Source of the DNA: Capillimicrobium parvum
GTDB lineage: Bacteria > Actinomycetota > Thermoleophilia > Solirubrobacterales > Solirubrobacteraceae
Reading direction: 5' to 3'
NCBI RefSeq assembly: GCF_021172045.1
Contig: NZ_CP087164.1
Location: 124,001 to 188,000 of the forward strand
Length of the DNA: 64,000 nucleotides
How positions within the stretch are numbered: position 1 is the first letter of the stretch; each line of letters begins with the position of its first letter. Of the stretch, positions 9,132 through 57,102 are shown one piece after another. The position numbers were made by a program, and so were the translations under genes. The notes below the pieces were generated by a model. The model did not search any database. It saw only the letters and a list, made by a program, of their open reading frames with translations, and was not told the origin of the DNA.

Positions 9132-11072
9132 GTGCGCCGCGTTCGATCGGCGACCGTCCCCCTGCACCGCCATTCGATCCCGCAGATCCTGGTCGATGGG
9201 GTGCTGGTCGCACTCTCCTATTGGCTGGCCTTCTGGCTGCGCTTCGACAACGGCATCAGCCCGCCGTACGAGGAGCTGCTGCGCGACACGCTGCCCTGGG
9301 TCGTGGGCGGCTCGCTGGTCGTCTTCGTCGTCTCGCGCATGTACGGGAAGTGGTGGCGCTACGCCGGCCAGCGCGACCTGCTCGTCGTCGTGCGCTCCGT
9401 CGTGCTCGTCACGCTCGCGCTCGTCGCCGCGGTCGCCGTCCTGCACCCGGTGACGCGCCCGACCACGGAGGGCGACGTCTCCGTCGGCCTGCCCTCGAGC
9501 GTCATCGCGCTGTTCATGCTCATCGCGATCGCGCTCATGTGCGGGGTGCGCCTCCTCGCCCGGATGCTGCACGAGCGCCCGCGCGGCTTCCGTGCGCGGG
9601 CGGACGCGCGCACGGTGCTGATCGTCGGCGCCGGCGACGGCGGCCGGCTGGTGCTGCGCGAGATCCTGCGCAACCGCGACCTGGGCCTCAACCCGGTCGG
9701 CTTCGTCGACGACGACCCGACGAAGCGCCGCATCCGCGTCGAGGGCGTGCCCGTCCTGGGCAACACGCAGGAGGAGTTCCCGCGCGTGCTCGACGAGGTC
9801 GAGCCCGACGAGGTCATCATCGCGATCCCCTCGGCTCCGGGCACGCTGCGCGGGCGGGTCGTGGGCGCCTGCCGGCGGCGCGGCATCCCGATCCGCACGC
9901 TGCCGACGGTCTTCGAGCTGCTGCAGGGCGGCGGCTCGACGTACGTGCGCCAGGTGCGCGACGTCCAAGTCGAGGACGTGCTCGGGCGCGAGCCGGTGCG
10001 CTTCGAGATCGACCGCGTCGGCCGCTACCTCGACGGCGAGGTGGTGCTCGTCACCGGCGCCGGCGGCTCGATCGGCGCGGAGCTCTGCCGCCAGATCGCC
10101 CGCGTCGCGCCGCGCAAGCTGATCCTGCTCGACCATGCCGAGGACAACCTCTTCCGCATCCAGCGCGAGCTCGAGGACGACCGCCACGTGCACCCCTCGA
10201 CGCTGGCCGCGGTGCTCGCGGACTGCAAGGAGGAGGAGCGCATGCGGGAGGTGTTCGGCGAGCACCACCCGACGATCGTCTTCCACGCCGCCGCCTACAA
10301 GCACGTGGGCCTCATGGAGCTCAACCCGGTCGAGGCGGTGCGCAACAACGCGCTCGCGACGCGCGTGATGGCGCGCGTGGGCGGCGACCTCGGCGTGCGC
10401 ACCTTCGTTCTCGTCTCCACCGACAAGGCGGTCACCCCGGCGACCGTGATGGGCGCGTCGAAGGCGCTGGCGGAGTGGGCGGTCGAGGAGGCCGGCGCGC
10501 GCTATCCGGGCACGAGCTTCGCCACCGTGCGCTTCGGCAACGTGCTCGGCTCGTCGGGCAGCGTCGTGCCGATCTTCCGCGCGCAGATCGCCAAGGGCGG
10601 CCCGGTGACGATCACCGACCCGGCGATGACCCGGTACTTCATGACGATCCCGGAGGCGGTGCAGCTCGTCATCCGCTCGGGCTCGCTGGCGAAGGGCGGC
10701 GAGGTCTTCGTGCTCGAGATGGGCGACCCGGTGTCGATCATGCAGCTCGCCCGCGACATGATCGAGCTGTCGGGGCTGCGTCCGGAGGAGGACATCGCGA
10801 TCGAGGTCGTCGGGCGGCGGCCCGGCGAGAAGGTCCACGAGGACCTGTTCAACCCGTACGAGCGGCCGCAGGCCACGCCGGCCGAGAAGATCCAGATCGC
10901 CGAGCGCGAGCCGCTGGCCCCCGAGGTCGTCCACGCGATGTTCGCCGAGATCGGGCTGCTGGTGCTCGAGGGCGACGCGGCCGGCCTCGCGCGCAAGGTC
11001 ACGGAGCTCTCGGCCCTGCGGTCGGGCTCCCACGTCGACGCCGCCGCGGTTTCCGTAGACCCTCGGGCTTAG
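9132..11072 (+). CDS. WbpM/CapD/FlaA1-type membrane nucleotide-sugar 4,6-dehydratase
   Basis: 646-residue polysaccharide-biosynthesis protein. About four hydrophobic segments fill the first 145 residues (ILVDGVLVALSYWLAFWLRF, WVVGGSLVVFVV and others). A CoA-binding-like Rossmann region follows (VLIVGAGDGGRLVLREIL), then the catalytic SDR domain: VTGAGGSIGAELCRQI, FHAAAYKHV, VSTDKAV and VMGASKALAEW. The MxxxK in place of YxxxK is characteristic of UDP-GlcNAc 4,6-dehydratases such as WbpM and PglF. It probably makes UDP-4-keto-6-deoxy-GlcNAc at the inner membrane face. GTG 9132 was chosen because it precedes the first membrane segment and follows a leaderless -10 box. Confidence 0.9.
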   Translation: MRRVRSATVPLHRHSIPQILVDGVLVALSYWLAFWLRFDNGISPPYEELLRDTLPWVVGGSLVVFVVSRMYGKWWRYAGQRDLLVVVRSVVLVTLALVAAVAVLHPVTRPTTEGDVSVGLPSSVIALFMLIAIALMCGVRLLARMLHERPRGFRARADARTVLIVGAGDGGRLVLREILRNRDLGLNPVGFVDDDPTKRRIRVEGVPVLGNTQEEFPRVLDEVEPDEVIIAIPSAPGTLRGRVVGACRRRGIPIRTLPTVFELLQGGGSTYVRQVRDVQVEDVLGREPVRFEIDRVGRYLDGEVVLVTGAGGSIGAELCRQIARVAPRKLILLDHAEDNLFRIQRELEDDRHVHPSTLAAVLADCKEEERMREVFGEHHPTIVFHAAAYKHVGLMELNPVEAVRNNALATRVMARVGGDLGVRTFVLVSTDKAVTPATVMGASKALAEWAVEEAGARYPGTSFATVRFGNVLGSSGSVVPIFRAQIAKGGPVTITDPAMTRYFMTIPEAVQLVIRSGSLAKGGEVFVLEMGDPVSIMQLARDMIELSGLRPEEDIAIEVVGRRPGEKVHEDLFNPYERPQATPAEKIQIAEREPLAPEVVHAMFAEIGLLVLEGDAAGLARKVTELSALRSGSHVDAAAVSVDPRA

Positions 11073-11091: not shown

Positions 11092-11315
11092 GCCTCCTGG
11101 CGACAGGGTGCGGTGGTGCACCCTTCACCGCGCTGGTCGCCGTCGGCACCCCTGGTGAACCCTCGGGGGCCCGCCTCCTGGCGACAGGGTGCGGTGGTGC
11201 ACCCTTCACCGCGCTGGTCGCCGTCGGCACCCCTGGTGAACCCTCGGGGGCCCGCCTCCTGGCGACAGGGTGCGGTGGTGCACCCTTCACCGCGCTGGTC
11301 GCCGTCGGCACCCCT
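11092..11315. repeat. 81-bp tandem repeat, 2.8 copies, ending at a -10 box
   Basis: Units begin at 11092, 11173 and 11254, each with GCCTCCTGGCGACAGGGTGC; the third is cut after 62 bases. Between 11072 and 11091 there is a degenerate end of a further copy. Every unit holds AGGGTGC-GGTGGT-GCACCCT (first at 11105-11124), a 7-bp stem with a 6-base loop. The period is 27 codons, so both strands stay open across it, but I see no convincing start or protein. The last repeated base, T11315, is the first base of TAGACT, the likely -10 box of the next gene. Confidence 0.95.
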
Positions 11316-11330: not shown

Positions 11331-12725
11331 ATGGCCGTCGCCCCCCTGACCGCCGCCTTCGGCATCCCGAGCCAGGTCGAGTCGATCGGAGCAGTCGCCG
11401 GACTCGCCGCCATCCTCGGACTCGCGGTGCTGTCCATGCTCTACTTCGCGCAGGCGCGCGAGCTCAAGCGCCTGCGCGAGTGGGCCGGGCGCGGGCCGGA
11501 GCGGGCGGCCGAGCTGCAGGAGCGCGTGAGCAGCAGCCCCGTTCCACGGCGACCGCCCGCCGCGCAGGCGCGCGGCGCCGTCTCGCCCGCGACGCCCGCG
11601 GGTCAGGCCGTCCAGGGCCAGGTCCCGGGCGCCGCCGCCCCGCGCCCGGCGACCGGCAGCGCCGCCGCGGCCGCGGCCGGAGCGACCGCCGCCACCGCCG
11701 CCCCGGGCCAGCCCGCTACGGCGCCCAACGGCCAGACGGGCGCGCCCGGGGCCCCCGCGGCGCCGTCCGGGCCCGGCGCGCCGGTGCAGCCCGCCCAGGC
11801 GCCCCCGGCGGGCCAGCCCGGCCAGCCCAGTCCCGCCGCTCCGGGCCAGCGTGGCCAGCCCGCTCCCGTCGCTCCGGGCCAGCCCGGCCAGCCCGCTCCC
11901 GCCGCTCCCGGCCAGCCCGGCACCGATCAGCCCACCACCGCATCCCCGGCGGCCCGCCCGGCCACGCCCGCCCCGGGTCAGCCCGCGCAACCCGCCCAGC
12001 CGGTGCGGCCCGCCACGGCCGGCGCCCCCGCGCCCGCCTCGACGGCGGCCCGCAGCGCCGTGCCCGGCGCCCGCACGGCCGCCGGTGCTGCCGGCGCCGC
12101 GGCCCCCGGCGCGCGCGCTGCCGGCCGGCCCCGGGCGGCCGCGCCCCTGCGCACCGGCACGCCCTCGGCCACCGTCCCACCACGGCGAGGCGGGGGCGCA
12201 GGCACCGGCGGCGGCGACGACGGCGACGGCCGCTCGCGCCGGGGCCTGCTGCTGATCGGCGGCGCGTTGATCGCCGTGATCGTCGCGGTCGTCTTCGCCA
12301 TCACCCAGCTCGGCGGCGGCAGCGACGGCAATAGCAGCGGCGGGACGCAGGCGAGCACGCAGACCGGCAACGCCATCGCCCCCACGCGCACGACCCAGCC
12401 GGCGAGCCAGGCGTCCGACAGTTCGCGCGCGAAGACCGTCGTCGGCGTGCTGAACGGCACGACGGTGCCGGGGCTGGCCCGCTCGGTCGCCGACAAGCTC
12501 GAGGCGCGCAAGTACCGCATCGGGACGGTCACGAACGCGCCGGACCAGCAGCGCTCCGCCACCCAGGTGGCCTACCAGCCCGGCAGCGTCCGCATGGCCC
12601 GCGACGTCGCTCGCATCATCGACGTCGGGTCCGACGCCGTCGTGCCCATCGACGAGGTGACGTCGGCCACCGCGGGCCCCGATGCGCTCGTCGTCGTGAC
12701 CGTCGGCTCCGACCAGTCCCGGTAG
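11331..12725 (+). CDS. Membrane protein with proline/alanine-rich linker and LytR_C domain
   Basis: 464 residues. A membrane segment near residues 20-40 (AVAGLAAILGLAVLSMLYFA) is followed by a charged stretch, about 250 residues of low-complexity Pro/Ala/Gly/Gln with GQPGQPAP-like repeats, a second membrane segment (LLLIGGALIAVIVAVVFAI, about 305-323), and a C-terminal domain starting KTVVGVLNGTTVPGLARSVADKLEARKY that matches the LytR/CpsA/Psr C-terminal domain. Such proteins sit at the cell envelope, sometimes near wall-polymer ligases. No LCP catalytic domain is present. ATG 11331 follows the 81-bp repeat array. Confidence 0.75.
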   Translation: MAVAPLTAAFGIPSQVESIGAVAGLAAILGLAVLSMLYFAQARELKRLREWAGRGPERAAELQERVSSSPVPRRPPAAQARGAVSPATPAGQAVQGQVPGAAAPRPATGSAAAAAAGATAATAAPGQPATAPNGQTGAPGAPAAPSGPGAPVQPAQAPPAGQPGQPSPAAPGQRGQPAPVAPGQPGQPAPAAPGQPGTDQPTTASPAARPATPAPGQPAQPAQPVRPATAGAPAPASTAARSAVPGARTAAGAAGAAAPGARAAGRPRAAAPLRTGTPSATVPPRRGGGAGTGGGDDGDGRSRRGLLLIGGALIAVIVAVVFAITQLGGGSDGNSSGGTQASTQTGNAIAPTRTTQPASQASDSSRAKTVVGVLNGTTVPGLARSVADKLEARKYRIGTVTNAPDQQRSATQVAYQPGSVRMARDVARIIDVGSDAVVPIDEVTSATAGPDALVVVTVGSDQSR

Positions 12726-12899: not shown

Positions 12900-13655
12900 A
12901 TGACCTCCGGCCCGCTCGAGCTGCCCCGCCGCAGCGCGAAGCCCCGGTCGACCGGCATCACCCACGTCCTCGACCGCGGCCTCTCCCTACGCCAGATCGA
13001 CGACCTCGTCGAGGTCTGCGGCGACAGCGTCGACATCGTGAAGCTCGGCTGGGGGACAGCGCTGGCCACCGGCAACCTCCAGCCGAAGCTCGACCGGCTG
13101 CGGTCGCACGGCATCACGGCCGTCCTCGGCGGGACGCTCACCGAGCTCGCCATCCGCCAGGGCCGGGTGGACGGGCTCGTCGCCTGGCTGCACGAGCTGG
13201 GCCTCGAGCACGTCGAGGTCTCCGATGGCACGATCTCGCTCGATCCCGAGGAGAAGCGAGGGCTCATCGCCCGTTTGGCGAAGGAGTTCACCGTGCTCAG
13301 CGAAGTGGGATCCAAGGACGCCGAGGAGATCATGGCCCCGTACCGGTGGGTCGAGCAGATCGAAGCCGAGCTCGCGGCCGGGGCGTGGAAGGTCATCGCC
13401 GAGGCCCGGGAGACCGGCACGGCCGGCATCTACCGCCCGGACGGCGAGGTGCGCAAGGGGCTGATCGACGAGATCGCCCACGCGATCGACCCGGCGAAGC
13501 TGCTGTTCGAGGCGCCGCGCAAGGACCAGCAGGTGTTCTTCCTGCGCCGCTTCGGGCCGGACGTCAACCTCGGCAACATCGCTCCGGACGAGGTGCTCTC
13601 GCTGGAGACGCTGCGCCTCGGGCTGCGCTCGGACACGATGGAGCTGGGCGGATGA
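12900..13655 (+). CDS. comA: Phosphosulfolactate synthase (ComA family)
   Basis: 251-residue TIM-barrel enzyme expected to add sulfite to phosphoenolpyruvate to give (2R)-phospho-3-sulfolactate, first step towards sulfolactate or coenzyme M. Seen: GITHVLDRGLSLRQIDDL, DIVKLGWGTAL, VLGGTLTELAIRQ, HVEVSDGTISL, VLSEVGSKD, KVIAEARETGTAGIY and NLGNIAPDEVLSLETLRLGLRSDT, motifs in ComA order and spacing. Some bacterial and plant homologues of this family have no proven activity, so the reaction is probable, not certain. Its stop overlaps the start of a histidine phosphatase (ATGA). No comB, comC or other sulfonate gene is visible. Confidence 0.85.
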   Translation: MTSGPLELPRRSAKPRSTGITHVLDRGLSLRQIDDLVEVCGDSVDIVKLGWGTALATGNLQPKLDRLRSHGITAVLGGTLTELAIRQGRVDGLVAWLHELGLEHVEVSDGTISLDPEEKRGLIARLAKEFTVLSEVGSKDAEEIMAPYRWVEQIEAELAAGAWKVIAEARETGTAGIYRPDGEVRKGLIDEIAHAIDPAKLLFEAPRKDQQVFFLRRFGPDVNLGNIAPDEVLSLETLRLGLRSDTMELGG

Positions 13656-14188
13656 TCCTGTTGGCGCGCCACGGCGAGACGCCGTACAACGCCGAGCGCC
13701 GCTTCCAGGGCCAGGGCGACGTGGCGCTCAACGCCCGCGGCCTCGAGCAGGCCCGCGAGCTCGCCCAGCTCGCCGTGCAGGAGCCGCTCGCGGCGCTGTA
13801 CGCGAGCCCGATCCGTCGCGCCCGCGAGACCGCGGAGATCGTCGCCGAGGCCGTCGGGCTCGAGCCGCGCTTCGACCCGCGCTTCGCCGAGACGGACGTC
13901 GGCGACTGGCAGGACCTGCTGTTCGATGACGTCGAGCGCGAGCATCCGGACCTGTGGGCGGCCTGGCAGGCCGGCGGCGCGTGGAGGTTCCCGGGCGGCG
14001 AGTCCCTCGCAGAGCAGCAGGAGCGCGTGATCGCCGGGCTCGTCGACGTCACGCAGCGCGGCGAGCTGCCGGCGCTCGTCGTCTGCCACCGGGGCTCGAT
14101 CCGCGTCGCCCTCTGCCACACCCGCAACGAGGGCCTGGAGGCGTTCCAGCAGATCGCGATCCCGAACGGGGCCCTGATCCGGCTGTGA
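13652..14188 (+). CDS. Histidine phosphatase family protein coupled to comA
   Basis: 178-residue phosphoglycerate-mutase-like phosphatase. ILLARHGETPYNAERRFQGQGD holds the RHGE motif with the phospho-accepting histidine; ALYASPIRRARETAEI, ETDVGDWQDL and LVVCHRGSIRVAL (second catalytic histidine) complete the active site. It starts inside the comA stop (ATGA), so the two are made together. The known phosphosulfolactate phosphatase, ComB, is a different fold; this protein could replace it and release sulfolactate. That role is inferred only from coupling. Confidence 0.85.
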   Translation: MILLARHGETPYNAERRFQGQGDVALNARGLEQARELAQLAVQEPLAALYASPIRRARETAEIVAEAVGLEPRFDPRFAETDVGDWQDLLFDDVEREHPDLWAAWQAGGAWRFPGGESLAEQQERVIAGLVDVTQRGELPALVVCHRGSIRVALCHTRNEGLEAFQQIAIPNGALIRL

Positions 14189-14206
14189 GCCATGCCGGCC
14201 CCGTTC

Positions 14207-14449
14207 GGCGGCCCGTCGTCGTGAGACCCTGCGGGTCCTCACACTCGAGCGTCGCGTCCCTCGGCGGCCCGTCGTCGTGAGACCCTGCGGGTCCTCACAC
14301 TCGAGCGTCGCGTCCCTCGGCGGCCCGTCGTCGTGAGACCCTGCGGGTCCTCACACTCGAGCGTCGCGTCCCTCGGCGGCCCGTCGTCGTGAGACCCTGC
14401 GGGTCCTCACACTCGAGCGTCGCGTCCCTCGGCGGCCCGTCGTCGTGAG
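14207..14449. repeat. 56-bp tandem repeat, 4.3 copies, ending in a start codon
   Basis: Units begin at 14207, 14263, 14319, 14375 and 14431, each opening GGCGGCCCGTCGTCGTGAG; spacing is exactly 56 bases with almost no divergence. Each full unit contains GTGAGACCC-TGC-GGGTCCTCAC, a stem of nine pairs with one bulged C. The fifth copy is cut after GTCGTGAG, and its GTG is the start codon at 14445. The array fills nearly all of the 256 bases between 14188 and 14445. Because 56 is not a multiple of 3 a coding role is unlikely. Confidence 0.95.
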
Positions 14450-16250
14450 CACGACCCGCCTGCGGGTGGGGGTGTTCGTCCTCCTTGTCCTGGCCACGTT
14501 CGGCGCGTTCTTCGTCGTGCAGCGCATCAAGCGCGAGCCGGCCGACGTGCGCTTCGCCCGCATCACGCCGCTGTTCTCGCCGAACGGCGACGGCCGCCTG
14601 GAGCGCGCCCGCGTGAGCTTCCAGCTGCGCACGGCGGACACGATCTCGCTGCGCGTGATCGACCGGGCCGGCGACGTCGTGCGGACGCTGATCGCCGACC
14701 GGCGTGTACCCGCCGGCACGCGGGTGCGGGCGCTCTGGAACGGGCGTGACGACGCGGGCCGCGTCATGCCCGACGGCGTCTACCGCTACCGGGTCACGCT
14801 GCAGGACCAGGGCCGCGCGGTCCCGCTGCCGCGCGGGGTGCGCATCGACACGAAGCCGCCGCGCCCGCGCGTCCAGCGCATCGGCGGCGACAACCGCGGC
14901 CCTGACATCCTGCCCCGGCCCGACGGGCGCCCGGTGACGATCCGCTTCTACAACCCCGCGCGCAACCAGCCGACCGAGCTCATGGTCTACCGCACGAACC
15001 CCGGCACGGCGATGGTGTTCCGCACGGTCGTCCCGGGCGGGCGGCGCTCGTTCGTCTACGACGGCCGCGACGCCGCCGGCCGGCCGCTGACCCCCGGCAC
15101 GTACGTCGTGGCGCTGCGCACGCGCGATCTGGCCGGCAACGCCGGCACGGCGCCCGGGCGCCTGCCGCCGAAGGCCCAGTACGGCCAGCGCCTGTCCGGC
15201 CATGGCGGCATCACCGTTCGCGACCTCGCGGCGCAGCCGCCGCTCGAGCCGACGATCACCGAGTCCGCGGCGACCTTCGGCGTCGACGCCCGCGGGCGGA
15301 ACTTCGCCTGGTCGGTGCGTCGCGCCGGCACCGGCCGGCCGTACCGCGAGGGCCGCCCCCGCACCCTGCCCGTCGTGAAGATCGACGCGCCGAAGACCCC
15401 CGATTCCGGCCTGTACCTCTTCGAGGCGCATACGCGCGACCACCAGACGCAAGTCCCGTTCCCCGTCCAGGCGGTGAAGACCCAGAAGGTGCTCGTCGTG
15501 CTGCCGGCGATCACCTGGCAGGGCACGAACCCGGTGGACGACGACGGCGACGGCTGGCCCAACACGCTCACGGACGGGCTGCCGGTGCGCCGCGAGCGCG
15601 TCTTCGCCAACGGCCTGCCCGAGGACCTCGTCCAGCGCGTCGCCCCGCTGCTCATCCACCTCGACCGCACCGGCCTGCGCTACGACCTCACGACCGACCT
15701 GGGCCTGGCGACGAACGAGGGCCCCCGGCTCGAGGGCCATACCGGCGTCGTGCTCGCCGGCGACATGCGCTGGCTGCCGGCCGCACAGCAGCGCGCGCTG
15801 CGGCGCTTCGTGCGCAACGGCGGCAAGGTCGCCACGTTCGGCATCGACTCGCTGCGCCGCCAGGTCCGCGTCACGCCGAACCGCCTCGTCGACCCCACCG
15901 CGCCCGCCCGCACCGACGCGTTCGGCGCGACGCTGCGCCCGCTCGTCCGGGCCCCCGGCACGACGCTGACGATCTTCAACGACGAGATCGACCTGTTCGC
16001 CGGCAACGTGTTCGGCGGCACCGGCGTCTTCTCCGGCTACGACAGCTACGAGGAGACGGAGTCGGTCGGCGCCGGCGCGAAGGTCGTGGCGAGCGCGGTC
16101 ACCGAGTCCGGGCGCAAGGTGGTCGTCGCGGAGCGCCTCGGCAAGGGGCTGATCATCCGGTTCGGGCTGCCGCAGCTGCCGCAGCGGCTCGGCCGGCCGG
16201 GCAACGAGAGCGAGCTGGTGCGGAGGACATGGACGCTGCTCTCCCAGTGA
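14445..16250 (+). CDS. Membrane-anchored extracellular protein with FlgD-Ig-like domains
   Basis: 601 residues. One N-terminal anchor (VGVFVLLVLATFGAFFVV), then ITPLFSPNGDGRLERA, a hallmark of FlgD_ig-type beta domains, with a second such module ending GRDAAGRPLTPGTYVVALRTRDLAGNAG. The remaining part, including VLVVLPAITWQGTNPVDDDGDGWPNTL and GGKVATFGIDSLRR, resembles the N,N-dimethylformamidase-beta-like region of some actinobacterial surface proteins. The GTG start at 14445 lies in the last copy of the 56-bp repeat; no Shine-Dalgarno is visible. It overlaps the O-antigen ligase gene by 22 bases, so a role at the surface alongside exported glycan is plausible. Confidence 0.75.
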   Translation: MSTTRLRVGVFVLLVLATFGAFFVVQRIKREPADVRFARITPLFSPNGDGRLERARVSFQLRTADTISLRVIDRAGDVVRTLIADRRVPAGTRVRALWNGRDDAGRVMPDGVYRYRVTLQDQGRAVPLPRGVRIDTKPPRPRVQRIGGDNRGPDILPRPDGRPVTIRFYNPARNQPTELMVYRTNPGTAMVFRTVVPGGRRSFVYDGRDAAGRPLTPGTYVVALRTRDLAGNAGTAPGRLPPKAQYGQRLSGHGGITVRDLAAQPPLEPTITESAATFGVDARGRNFAWSVRRAGTGRPYREGRPRTLPVVKIDAPKTPDSGLYLFEAHTRDHQTQVPFPVQAVKTQKVLVVLPAITWQGTNPVDDDGDGWPNTLTDGLPVRRERVFANGLPEDLVQRVAPLLIHLDRTGLRYDLTTDLGLATNEGPRLEGHTGVVLAGDMRWLPAAQQRALRRFVRNGGKVATFGIDSLRRQVRVTPNRLVDPTAPARTDAFGATLRPLVRAPGTTLTIFNDEIDLFAGNVFGGTGVFSGYDSYEETESVGAGAKVVASAVTESGRKVVVAERLGKGLIIRFGLPQLPQRLGRPGNESELVRRTWTLLSQ

Positions 16251-45418: not shown

Positions 45419-45482
45419 CCCGGCGGGGGCCGTTGCGACACTGCGCAGCCCCGGGCGGGGGCCGCTGCGACACTGCGCAGCC
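45419..45482. repeat. Two 32-bp direct repeats ending at the modA start codon
   Basis: 45419-45450 and 45451-45482 match at 30 of 32 positions and share GCGGGGGCCG then TGCGACACTGCGCAGCC. The second copy ends directly before ATG 45483. Each has TGCG-N6-CGCA, a short inverted repeat that could bind a dimeric regulator. Confidence 0.9.
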
Positions 45483-56485: not shown

Positions 56486-57094
56486 ATGCCCGCAGACGAT
56501 CCCAACGCGCACATCGCCAGCATCGAGGTTGCGGCTTCGGCCGACGCGGCCTTCGCCTTCATGGCCGACGGCATGGCCCAGACGACATGGGCGCTCGGCA
56601 GCTGGGACCGCCGCGACGAGGGCGGCGGCATCGTCAGCGGGGTCTCGCTGTTCGACGGCCAGCGCCTCTACGTCCGCCTCGAGTCCGATCCGCGCCTGCG
56701 GCTCGTCGACTACTACGCCGGCGGATCGCCGGACGAGCTCGTCGGCCTGGTGCAGGCGCGCATCGTGCCGGGCGAGGACCTTGGCCGCGATCCCGGCTGC
56801 AGCGTCGTGACGCTCGTCGTGTGGCGCGGCGCGCGCCAGACGCCGGAGTCGTGGGCGCGGACCTACCACGCCTTCCGCACGGAGGTGCACCTGATCAAGG
56901 CGCGCATCGAGGGCCTGCTCCCGTGGCCGGTCGACGTGGCGCCGGGCGGCGTGGGCGGCGTGGTACCCGCTGCCGGCGCGGGATCGACCGGCGTGGGCGG
57001 CGTGGTACCCGCTGCCGGCACGGGATCGACCGGCGTGGGCGGCGTGGTACCCGCCGCCGGCACGGGTTCGACCGGCGTCGACGCGGCGAGCTGA
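56486..57094 (+). CDS. SRPBCC-domain protein with a repeat tail
   Basis: 202 residues. IEVAASADAAFAFMADGMAQTTWALG resembles the START/SRPBCC opening, and AQTTWALGSWDRR and WARTYHAFRTEVHLIKARIEGL the ends of such a hydrophobic ligand pocket (helix-grip). The last 50 residues are three GVGGVVPAAGTGST repeats of 14 residues. The enzyme-free pocket could bind or shuttle a hydrophobic substrate for the neighbouring oxidoreductases. It starts at ATG 56486 with a leaderless -10 box and is followed by the OYE gene after 8 bases. Confidence 0.75.
   Translation: MPADDPNAHIASIEVAASADAAFAFMADGMAQTTWALGSWDRRDEGGGIVSGVSLFDGQRLYVRLESDPRLRLVDYYAGGSPDELVGLVQARIVPGEDLGRDPGCSVVTLVVWRGARQTPESWARTYHAFRTEVHLIKARIEGLLPWPVDVAPGGVGGVVPAAGAGSTGVGGVVPAAGTGSTGVGGVVPAAGTGSTGVDAAS
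56948..57078 (+). repeat. 42-bp in-frame repeat in the SRPBCC gene
   Basis: Units begin at 56948, 56990, 57032 and a five-base fourth begins at 57074, each GGCGTGGGCGGCGTGGTACCC. They encode GVGGVVPAAGTGST. Because 42 is a multiple of 3, copy number can change without losing the frame. Confidence 0.95.
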
Positions 57095-57102
57095 GCCGCG
57101 CC

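What the first reader, a model, noticed from the sequence alone, without database searches (positions are those of the whole stretch)
14207..14449. 56-bp tandem array whose last copy provides a start codon
Four complete copies and the first 19 bases of a fifth; the GTG of the fifth is the start of the FlgD-Ig-like protein. Every copy has an imperfect terminator-like hairpin, which would put four hairpins in a row before the gene.
Basis: seen in the sequence. Interest (0 to 1): 0.6.

Follow-up and report, generated by a model that had tools for sequence, protein, structure and literature searches.

The report
Mobile spacer pairing with start codons
The four repeats are one array of a short genome-wide element that slips between overlapping genes, carries a tiny reading frame that may keep the genes linked in translation, and contains five letters that almost always match the start of the next gene.

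Summary
The array is real: four identical 56-bp units at 14221-14444, and the GTG after the last one starts the FlgD-Ig-like gene. It is not a local curiosity. The same unit occurs about 70 times at 52 places in this genome: 41 single, 11 in arrays of 2-4. It is almost absent from the nearest relatives. Each unit runs from the upstream gene's stop (DTGA, D = A/G/T) to the downstream gene's start (DTGA); 56 = 3x18+2 lets a 19-codon mini-ORF overlap both neighbours by 4 nt. At one orthologous site two congeners have a bare ATGA overlap, exactly 56 bp shorter. This is the architecture of mycobacterial MIRUs.

New here: after a small hairpin (P1), a 5-nt arm is the reverse complement of the downstream start region in 41 of 52 loci (shuffles: mean 15, maximum 24). 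Arm and start co-vary, also in another family and at an orthologous insertion. I read it as a mobile intercistronic element that masks the next start until its mini-ORF is translated. Terminator-type attenuation is not supported. Folding energies support the helix only weakly in most copies; function is inferred.

The parts
13652..14188 (+). upstream gene, histidine phosphatase branch 1 (His_Phos_1); stop TGA 14186-14188 inside GTGA 14185-14188
   Evidence: Pfam PF00300, E 6.6e-51; sequence
14185..14280 (+). mini-ORF A: GTG overlapping the upstream stop, 31 codons, running in frame through 36 nt and unit 1 to the TGA overlapping unit 2's GTG
   Evidence: read from the sequence; translation not shown
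14205..14220 (+). 16-bp partial unit (tail of a unit) before the first full copy
   Evidence: TRF array starts at 14205
14221..14276 (+). 56-bp unit 1
14277..14332 (+). 56-bp unit 2; mini-ORF B is 14277-14336
14333..14388 (+). 56-bp unit 3; mini-ORF C is 14333-14392
14389..14444 (+). 56-bp unit 4; mini-ORF D is 14389-14448 (19 codons), its stop TGA overlaps the gene start GTG
14393..14405 (+). P1 hairpin of the last unit (unit positions 5-17, stem 5-9 with 13-17)
   Evidence: across 52 loci pair 5:17 is standard in 52 of 52, of types GC 45, AT 3, CG 2, TA 1, GT 1
14406..14410 (+). arm CTCAC (unit positions 18-22), reverse complement of the downstream start region
   Evidence: perfect in 41 of 52 loci against shuffle mean 15.2, maximum 24
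14445..14449 (+). [quoted passage not shown]
14445..16250 (+). downstream gene, 601 aa, FlgD Ig-like domain and DMFA2_C-like C-terminal part
   Evidence: PF13860 E 1.2e-11, PF20254 E 2.1e-12

Best explanation
The array is four tandem copies of a MIRU-like interspersed element. Shown by comparison at one well-aligned site and consistent with the others read: the element sits at DTGA stop/start overlaps, adding exactly 56 bp with DTGA at both ends. Its length gives a 19-codon mini-ORF that begins at the upstream gene's stop and ends at the downstream gene's start, each with a 4-nt overlap. Tandem arrays are local re-duplications, and in a few places further insertions. Inferred: the mini-ORF is translated by ribosomes that terminate on the upstream gene, and it hands them on, so the insertion costs little. 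Shown statistically: a hairpin (P1, positions 5-17) is followed at once by a 5-nt arm (18-22) complementary to the first five bases of the downstream gene (57-61), and this complementarity has been kept by compensatory change. Inferred: as RNA the arm pairs with and masks the downstream start codon, so initiation there depends on a ribosome coming through the mini-ORF; the upstream stop DTGA can compete for the same arm. How the element moves is unknown.
For: Family: 59 hits of a 17-mer with up to 2 mismatches in the genome, none for the reversed control pattern; 69 copies at E < 0.002 with model R1; 52 loci in my list of 71 copies. Placement: an upstream CDS ends at the unit's TGA in 35 of 52 loci and a downstream CDS starts at the right site in 44 of 52 (a 45th, L064, was scored one base out of register there). 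Empty site at 4797964: G001 and G003 read ...GCGCGC|ATGA with projected gap 0 where own and G002 carry the unit (gap 56 in G002); further DTGA or near-DTGA empty sites in the nuo and flagellar regions. Length: 42 of 52 last units give exactly 19 codons although positions 23-56 average only 54% pairwise identity; the 6 loci out of that register whose downstream frame is shifted are in-frame N-terminal fusions. Pairing: arm = reverse complement of right site in 41 of 52 (shuffle maximum 24); among the 26 loci that are not CTCAC/GTGAG, 15 against shuffle maximum 8; arm against left site only 20 of 52, shuffle maximum 22; slid controls fall away. Independent genomes: G058 (another family) 6 of 7, including CTCAT/ATGAG and ATCAC/GTGAT; G063 11 of 11, G220 2 of 2 and G002 2 of 2 with G-U allowed. 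Orthologous insertion: own GTCAT/ATGAC against G002 CTCAT/ATGAG. Diverged units keep the pairing: 14 of 18 in the most diverged third.
Against: ViennaRNA gives the arm:start helix low mean probability (0.13 free, 0.20 with the left DTGA blocked; above 0.5 in 7 and 10 of 52), although for the last unit of this array it goes from 0.02 to 0.98. Five or six in-frame fusions keep a complement near the right site although no start codon is there, which start masking does not explain. The mini-ORF shows no peptide-level constraint (information at codon positions 0.74, 0.87, 0.75), and a second frame is almost as free of stops (4 of 52 against 3 of 52), so translation rests on length conservation and fusions. 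A Shine-Dalgarno-like GAGG/GGAG is present in only 32 of 52, and this array's own unit has none. The shuffles do not correct for relatedness of the copies.
Confidence: 0.6

Rival explanations
1. The arm is a targeting guide used during insertion (as guide sequences are in IS200/IS605-type single-strand transposition, recalled), not an RNA regulator: units land where the target matches their arm.
For: Arm pairs with the target-derived right site at 41 of 52 loci, also where that site is no start codon; the element is clearly dispersed; two tail types (CATC before GTG, CTCG before ATG) look like subfamilies with different targets.
Against: No Y1_Tnp (PF01797) match in the own genome or in G001-G003 (0 of these 4; 5 of 14 genomes searched have one). 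Diverged units keep pairing (14 of 18). The orthologous insertion shared with G002 has a changed start base and a changed arm. In array L061 the inner arms fit the final gene start better than their own right site.
Confidence: 0.17
2. The pairing is kept by mutation, not selection: template switching between imperfect inverted repeats (quasipalindrome correction, recalled) copies the start region into the arm.
For: It would explain pairing at fused sites that have no start codon.
Against: The arm is set 34 nt from its partner, and the bases next to it (23 and 56) were not drawn into the match except in the ATG type (offset table). The same five positions match in several genomes. Not tested directly.
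Confidence: 0.12
3. Transcription attenuator: four hairpins in a row terminate or pause transcription before the FlgD-like gene.
For: A hairpin is present in every copy.
Against: 0 terminator-like sites; z -0.46 for one unit; in 41 of 52 loci there is a single copy, and the same unit sits inside nuo and ribosomal-protein operons, where termination would be costly.
Confidence: 0.05
4. Ordinary minisatellite made by slippage, with no function and a chance start codon.
For: Copies within one array are identical or nearly so, as slippage would give.
Against: 52 dispersed loci with the same 56-bp register between stop and start codons, exact empty site, covariation.
Confidence: 0.03

Closest known systems
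MIRU, mycobacterial interspersed repetitive units (Supply et al. 1997, cited in PMC12548453)
   Same: Short interspersed repeat in intercistronic positions, single or in tandem arrays; appears mobile; inserts at start codons so that an ORF inside it is coupled to the gene with a -4 nt spacing (passage of PMC12548453 read). MIRUs are 40-100 bp at 41 places in H37Rv (PMC2734929 passage).
   Different: Other class of Actinobacteria (Solirubrobacterales), other sequence, fixed 56-bp unit, a P1 hairpin and a start-complementary arm. I did not compare with MIRU sequences, so I cannot say that MIRUs lack such an arm.
REP/BIME palindromic elements and their RAYT transposases (recalled)
   Same: Dispersed short hairpin elements, sometimes clustered.
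   Different: Fixed placement at stop/start codons, mini-ORF, one orientation relative to genes; no Y1_Tnp in the genome.
Rickettsia palindromic elements (recalled)
   Same: A repeat that can end up inside coding sequence in frame; here 6 loci are N-terminal fusions.
   Different: Main habitat here is between genes, not inside them.
RNA-unfolding type of translational coupling (phage coat/lysis and f1 VII/IX genes, described in PMC12548453)
   Same: A downstream start is masked by RNA structure that a ribosome on the upstream ORF opens (passage read).
   Different: Here the masking arm would be carried from place to place by a mobile element and matched to each gene.

Membership tests
MIRU-like intercistronic element | short repeat dispersed at many loci, single or tandem | tested here: met
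   52 loci; array sizes 1: 41, 2: 4, 3: 6, 4: 1
MIRU-like intercistronic element | located at stop/start (DTGA) junctions of co-directional genes | tested here: met
   upstream CDS ends at the unit's TGA in 35 of 52, downstream CDS starts at the right site in 44 of 52, both in 29 of 52
MIRU-like intercistronic element | internal ORF overlapping neighbours by 4 nt | tested here: met
   42 of 52 last units give 19 codons; 27 of 28 units listed before the two weak hits also do, for the 22 scored: 22 of 22
MIRU-like intercistronic element | mobility: filled and empty orthologous sites | tested here: met
   locus 4797964: own and G002 filled, G001, G003, G004 empty
MIRU (mycobacterial family by sequence) | sequence homology to mycobacterial MIRU | not tested
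   no MIRU sequence was fetched
MIRU-like intercistronic element | mini-ORF is translated and coupled | not testable with these tools
   needs ribosome profiling or reporters
REP/RAYT or IS200/IS605-derived element | Y1 transposase in the genome to mobilise it | tested here: not met
   0 matches in G000 at E <= 0.01; present in 5 of 14 genomes searched
Intrinsic terminator/attenuator | stem followed by a T-run | tested here: not met
   0 sites at 13900-14700
Known Rfam RNA | match to a covariance model | tested here: not met
   0 matches with E <= 1 at 13000-16000

The most novel reading that the evidence does not exclude
A mobile element with a variable 5-nt guide: the arm next to the P1 hairpin both fits the element to a particular stop/start target and afterwards pairs with that gene's start codon, so that each copy is matched to the gene it enters. 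This would be RNA- or DNA-guided insertion without a known transposase, coupled to start-codon control.
Probability: 0.2. Interest if true: 0.85.

Novelty: new variant of a known kind. Interest (0 to 1): 0.62.

Why it matters
MIRU loci are used worldwide for strain typing, yet how such elements move and what they do to the genes they split is open. Here is a second, unrelated-looking set in another actinobacterial class, with a clean filled/empty site and a feature that makes a mechanism testable: an arm that follows the start codon of each gene. Reporter tests with arm and start changed singly and together would decide between start masking, target guiding and no function.

Tried and rejected
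Rfam search: no match. Promoter and terminator scans: nothing. The first idea, a hairpin whose two arms DTGAG...CTCAC are the conserved feature, was given up: the left arm does not track the right arm beyond shuffling (20 of 52, shuffle maximum 22), whereas the stem 5-9/13-17 and arm:start pairing do. A peptide function was not supported (flat information over codon positions). A Y1-transposase link was not supported. An MFE-based switch is not generally supported. Other tandem arrays of the window are different sequences. Four pattern hits outside the model list (L175-L178) do not look like complete units, L175 possibly a relic. Of 8 of 232 genomes with R1 hits in the order, the single hits in G044 and G158 look like chance to me; G150 (L107) and G012 (L152) were not inspected. 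Paper searches found no description of this element or of an arm complementary to the start codon in MIRUs; they cover an open-licence library only, and Supply et al. 1997 was not read.

Full report
OBSERVATION. TRF finds 14205-14449, period 56, 4.4 copies, no differences between copies. In the register used below, units begin at GTGAG 14221, 14277, 14333 and 14389 and the next GTGAG, 14445, starts the 601-aa FlgD-Ig-like gene. Upstream lies a histidine phosphatase gene (13652-14188) that ends in GTGA at 14185-14188.

THE UNIT IS A GENOME-WIDE FAMILY. The window is G000:C1:124001-188000 of a 5.95-Mb single-contig genome. Relatives found by the FlgD-like protein are Solirubrobacterales / Solirubrobacteraceae records, apart from one titled Bifidobacterium breve MAG that I take to be mislabelled. 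A 17-base core with up to 2 mismatches has 59 hits against 0 for the reversed control. From 31 units of the first places fetched, which align without gaps over 62 columns, I built model R1; it finds 69 copies at E < 0.002 in the genome. I used these plus two weaker hits, 71 copies, which fall into 52 loci: 41 single, 4 double, 6 triple and one quadruple, the array of this window. Within an array copies are alike; between loci the 34 bp after the hairpin are very different (mean pairwise identity 54%, against 84% for positions 5-17), yet the register stays 56 bp in nearly all.

PLACEMENT. Reading frames and third-position G+C show that an upstream coding sequence ends at the TGA of the unit's first DTGA in 35 of 52 loci, and a downstream one starts at the DTGA after the last unit in 44 of 52 (L064 was scored one base off there and would be the 45th). 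56 is 3x18+2, so the unit is a 19-codon ORF (MRPCGSS... in this genome) whose start overlaps the upstream stop and whose stop overlaps the downstream start; 42 of 52 last units have exactly this length, 2 have 18, 1 has 16 and 7 run on. Six loci (L036-100814, L037, L038, L043, L045, L072-5226339) are shifted so that the mini-ORF is fused in frame to the downstream gene. In this window the chain is: phosphatase - 31-codon mini-ORF (14185-14280) - three 19-codon mini-ORFs - FlgD-like gene, each step with a 4-nt overlap (read). That the mini-ORFs are translated is inference: a second frame is nearly as open and there is no codon-position signal.

EMPTY SITES. At 4797964 the own genome has ...GC[ATGA + 52 bp]ATGACC..., G002 has a unit at the same place, and G001 and G003 (same genus) and G004 (same family) read straight through ...GC-ATGA... 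with a projected gap of 0. In the nuo and flagellar regions the relatives' junctions are DTGA overlaps or short gaps without units; G003 at 97247 may hold a relic (unverified). At the window locus, G001, G002 and G003 lack the array: G002 has a GTGA overlap, G003 an 8-nt and G001 a 24-nt spacing (L029-L031 carry the same sequence as L181, L180, L182). G005 and G008, also, show no array either.

DISTRIBUTION. R1 over 146 genomes of the family: matches at E <= 1e-4 in 4 (own, G002 with 2, G063 with 11, G150 with 1); G001 and G003 none. Over 232 genomes of the order: 8 with E <= 0.001, of which G058 (another family, 7 copies) and G220 (2) are clear and G044 and G158 look like chance. These large searches use stricter filters and lose weak matches. 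The pattern, many copies in a few scattered species and none in close kin, fits a mobile element. No Y1 transposase was found in the own genome; I did not search for other transposases. How it moves is open.

TWO HELICES. Over the last unit of each of the 52 loci, stem P1 (5-9 with 13-17) is complete in 42 of 52, and pair 5:17 is standard in 52 of 52 with GC, CG, AT, TA and GT types. Directly after it, positions 18-22 are the exact reverse complement of positions 57-61, the first five bases of the downstream gene, in 41 of 52; 10,000 shuffles of the right sites give mean 15.2 and maximum 24. Among the 26 loci that are not CTCAC/GTGAG, 15 match exactly, shuffle mean 2.3, maximum 8. Pairs seen include GTCAT/ATGAC (5), CTCAT/ATGAG (4), CACCC/GGGTG (2), ATCAC/GTGAT, GACAT/ATGTC, CTCAG/CTGAG and CGCCG/CGGCG. 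The arm against the left site gives 20 of 52, within the shuffle range (maximum 22). Other offsets give at most 11, and these are the ATG-type units with a sixth pair. R1 was built with the arm unpaired to the start, so the search was not biased to this pairing, though 31 of the units trained it. In other genomes the pairing is complete, G-U allowed, in 6 of 7 (G058), 11 of 11 (G063, arm shifted by one), 2 of 2 (G220) and 2 of 2 (G002); in G063 nearly all sites are GTGAG, so that genome says little about covariation. G058 alone shows CTCAT/ATGAG and ATCAC/GTGAT beside CTCAC/GTGAG, with left sites that do not match.

COMPENSATION AFTER INSERTION. The G002 unit at the shared site is closer to the own unit there (74% over 34 nt) than to any other of the 52 (next 68%), which suggests one ancestral insertion; own has arm GTCAT and start ATGACC, G002 arm CTCAT and start ATGAGC. 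The most diverged third of the units keeps complete pairing in 14 of 18; if the arm changed like the 34-nt part, 12% would be expected to keep it unchanged. This favours selection (or a templating mutation process) over matching at the time of insertion only.

MECHANISM. The arm lies inside the mini-ORF and covers the downstream start. The simplest reading is the RNA-unfolding type of translational coupling: the start is masked until a ribosome translating the mini-ORF opens the helix and terminates on the overlapping stop. The upstream stop DTGA can pair with the same arm, so a stop/start competition is possible; for the last unit of this array, blocking the left DTGA moves the arm:start helix from probability 0.02 to 0.98, but over all 52 loci the mean goes only from 0.13 to 0.20. 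So the case rests on covariation, not on folding energy. The fused loci, where a complement is kept without a start codon, are not explained by masking and keep the guide and templating rivals alive.

COMPARISON. A 2025 review (PMC12548453, passages read) describes MIRUs as mobile repeats that insert at start codons with an ORF coupled at -4 nt, which is this architecture; PMC2734929 (passages) gives 40-100 bp at 41 places, with copy number differing between isolates. I therefore call it MIRU-like: it works, as far as anatomy shows, like a MIRU. Sequence membership was not tested. The start-complementary arm I found in none of the paper searches, which do not hold the original MIRU paper.

Noticed in passing
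window 11092-11315: A second intergenic array: 81-bp unit, 2.8 copies, 100% identical, between the polysaccharide-type gene ending near 11072 and the gene at 11331; different sequence from the 56-bp unit.
   Followed up: no
window 45422-45482: Two 32-bp copies that end directly at an ATG (45483), again a repeat abutting a likely start codon; each holds an inverted repeat around GCTGCG...CGCAGC.
   Followed up: no
window 56947-57099: 42-bp array, about 3.6 copies, which looks in frame at the end of a coding sequence just before TGAGCC.
   Followed up: no
L036 100814 (G000:C1): Three degenerate units in frame form the N-terminal part of a CheR-like protein; relatives start at an ATGA overlap without them.
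   Followed up: partly
L145, L148 and other G063 loci: A variant family in another genus, peptide V/MRPCVALT..., with the arm shifted by one base and the same 19-codon length.
   Followed up: partly
L032 (CAMCUD010000004.1): A record titled Bifidobacterium breve MAG carries the Solirubrobacterales-type phosphatase/FlgD-like pair at 50% identity; the title may be a mislabel.
   Followed up: no
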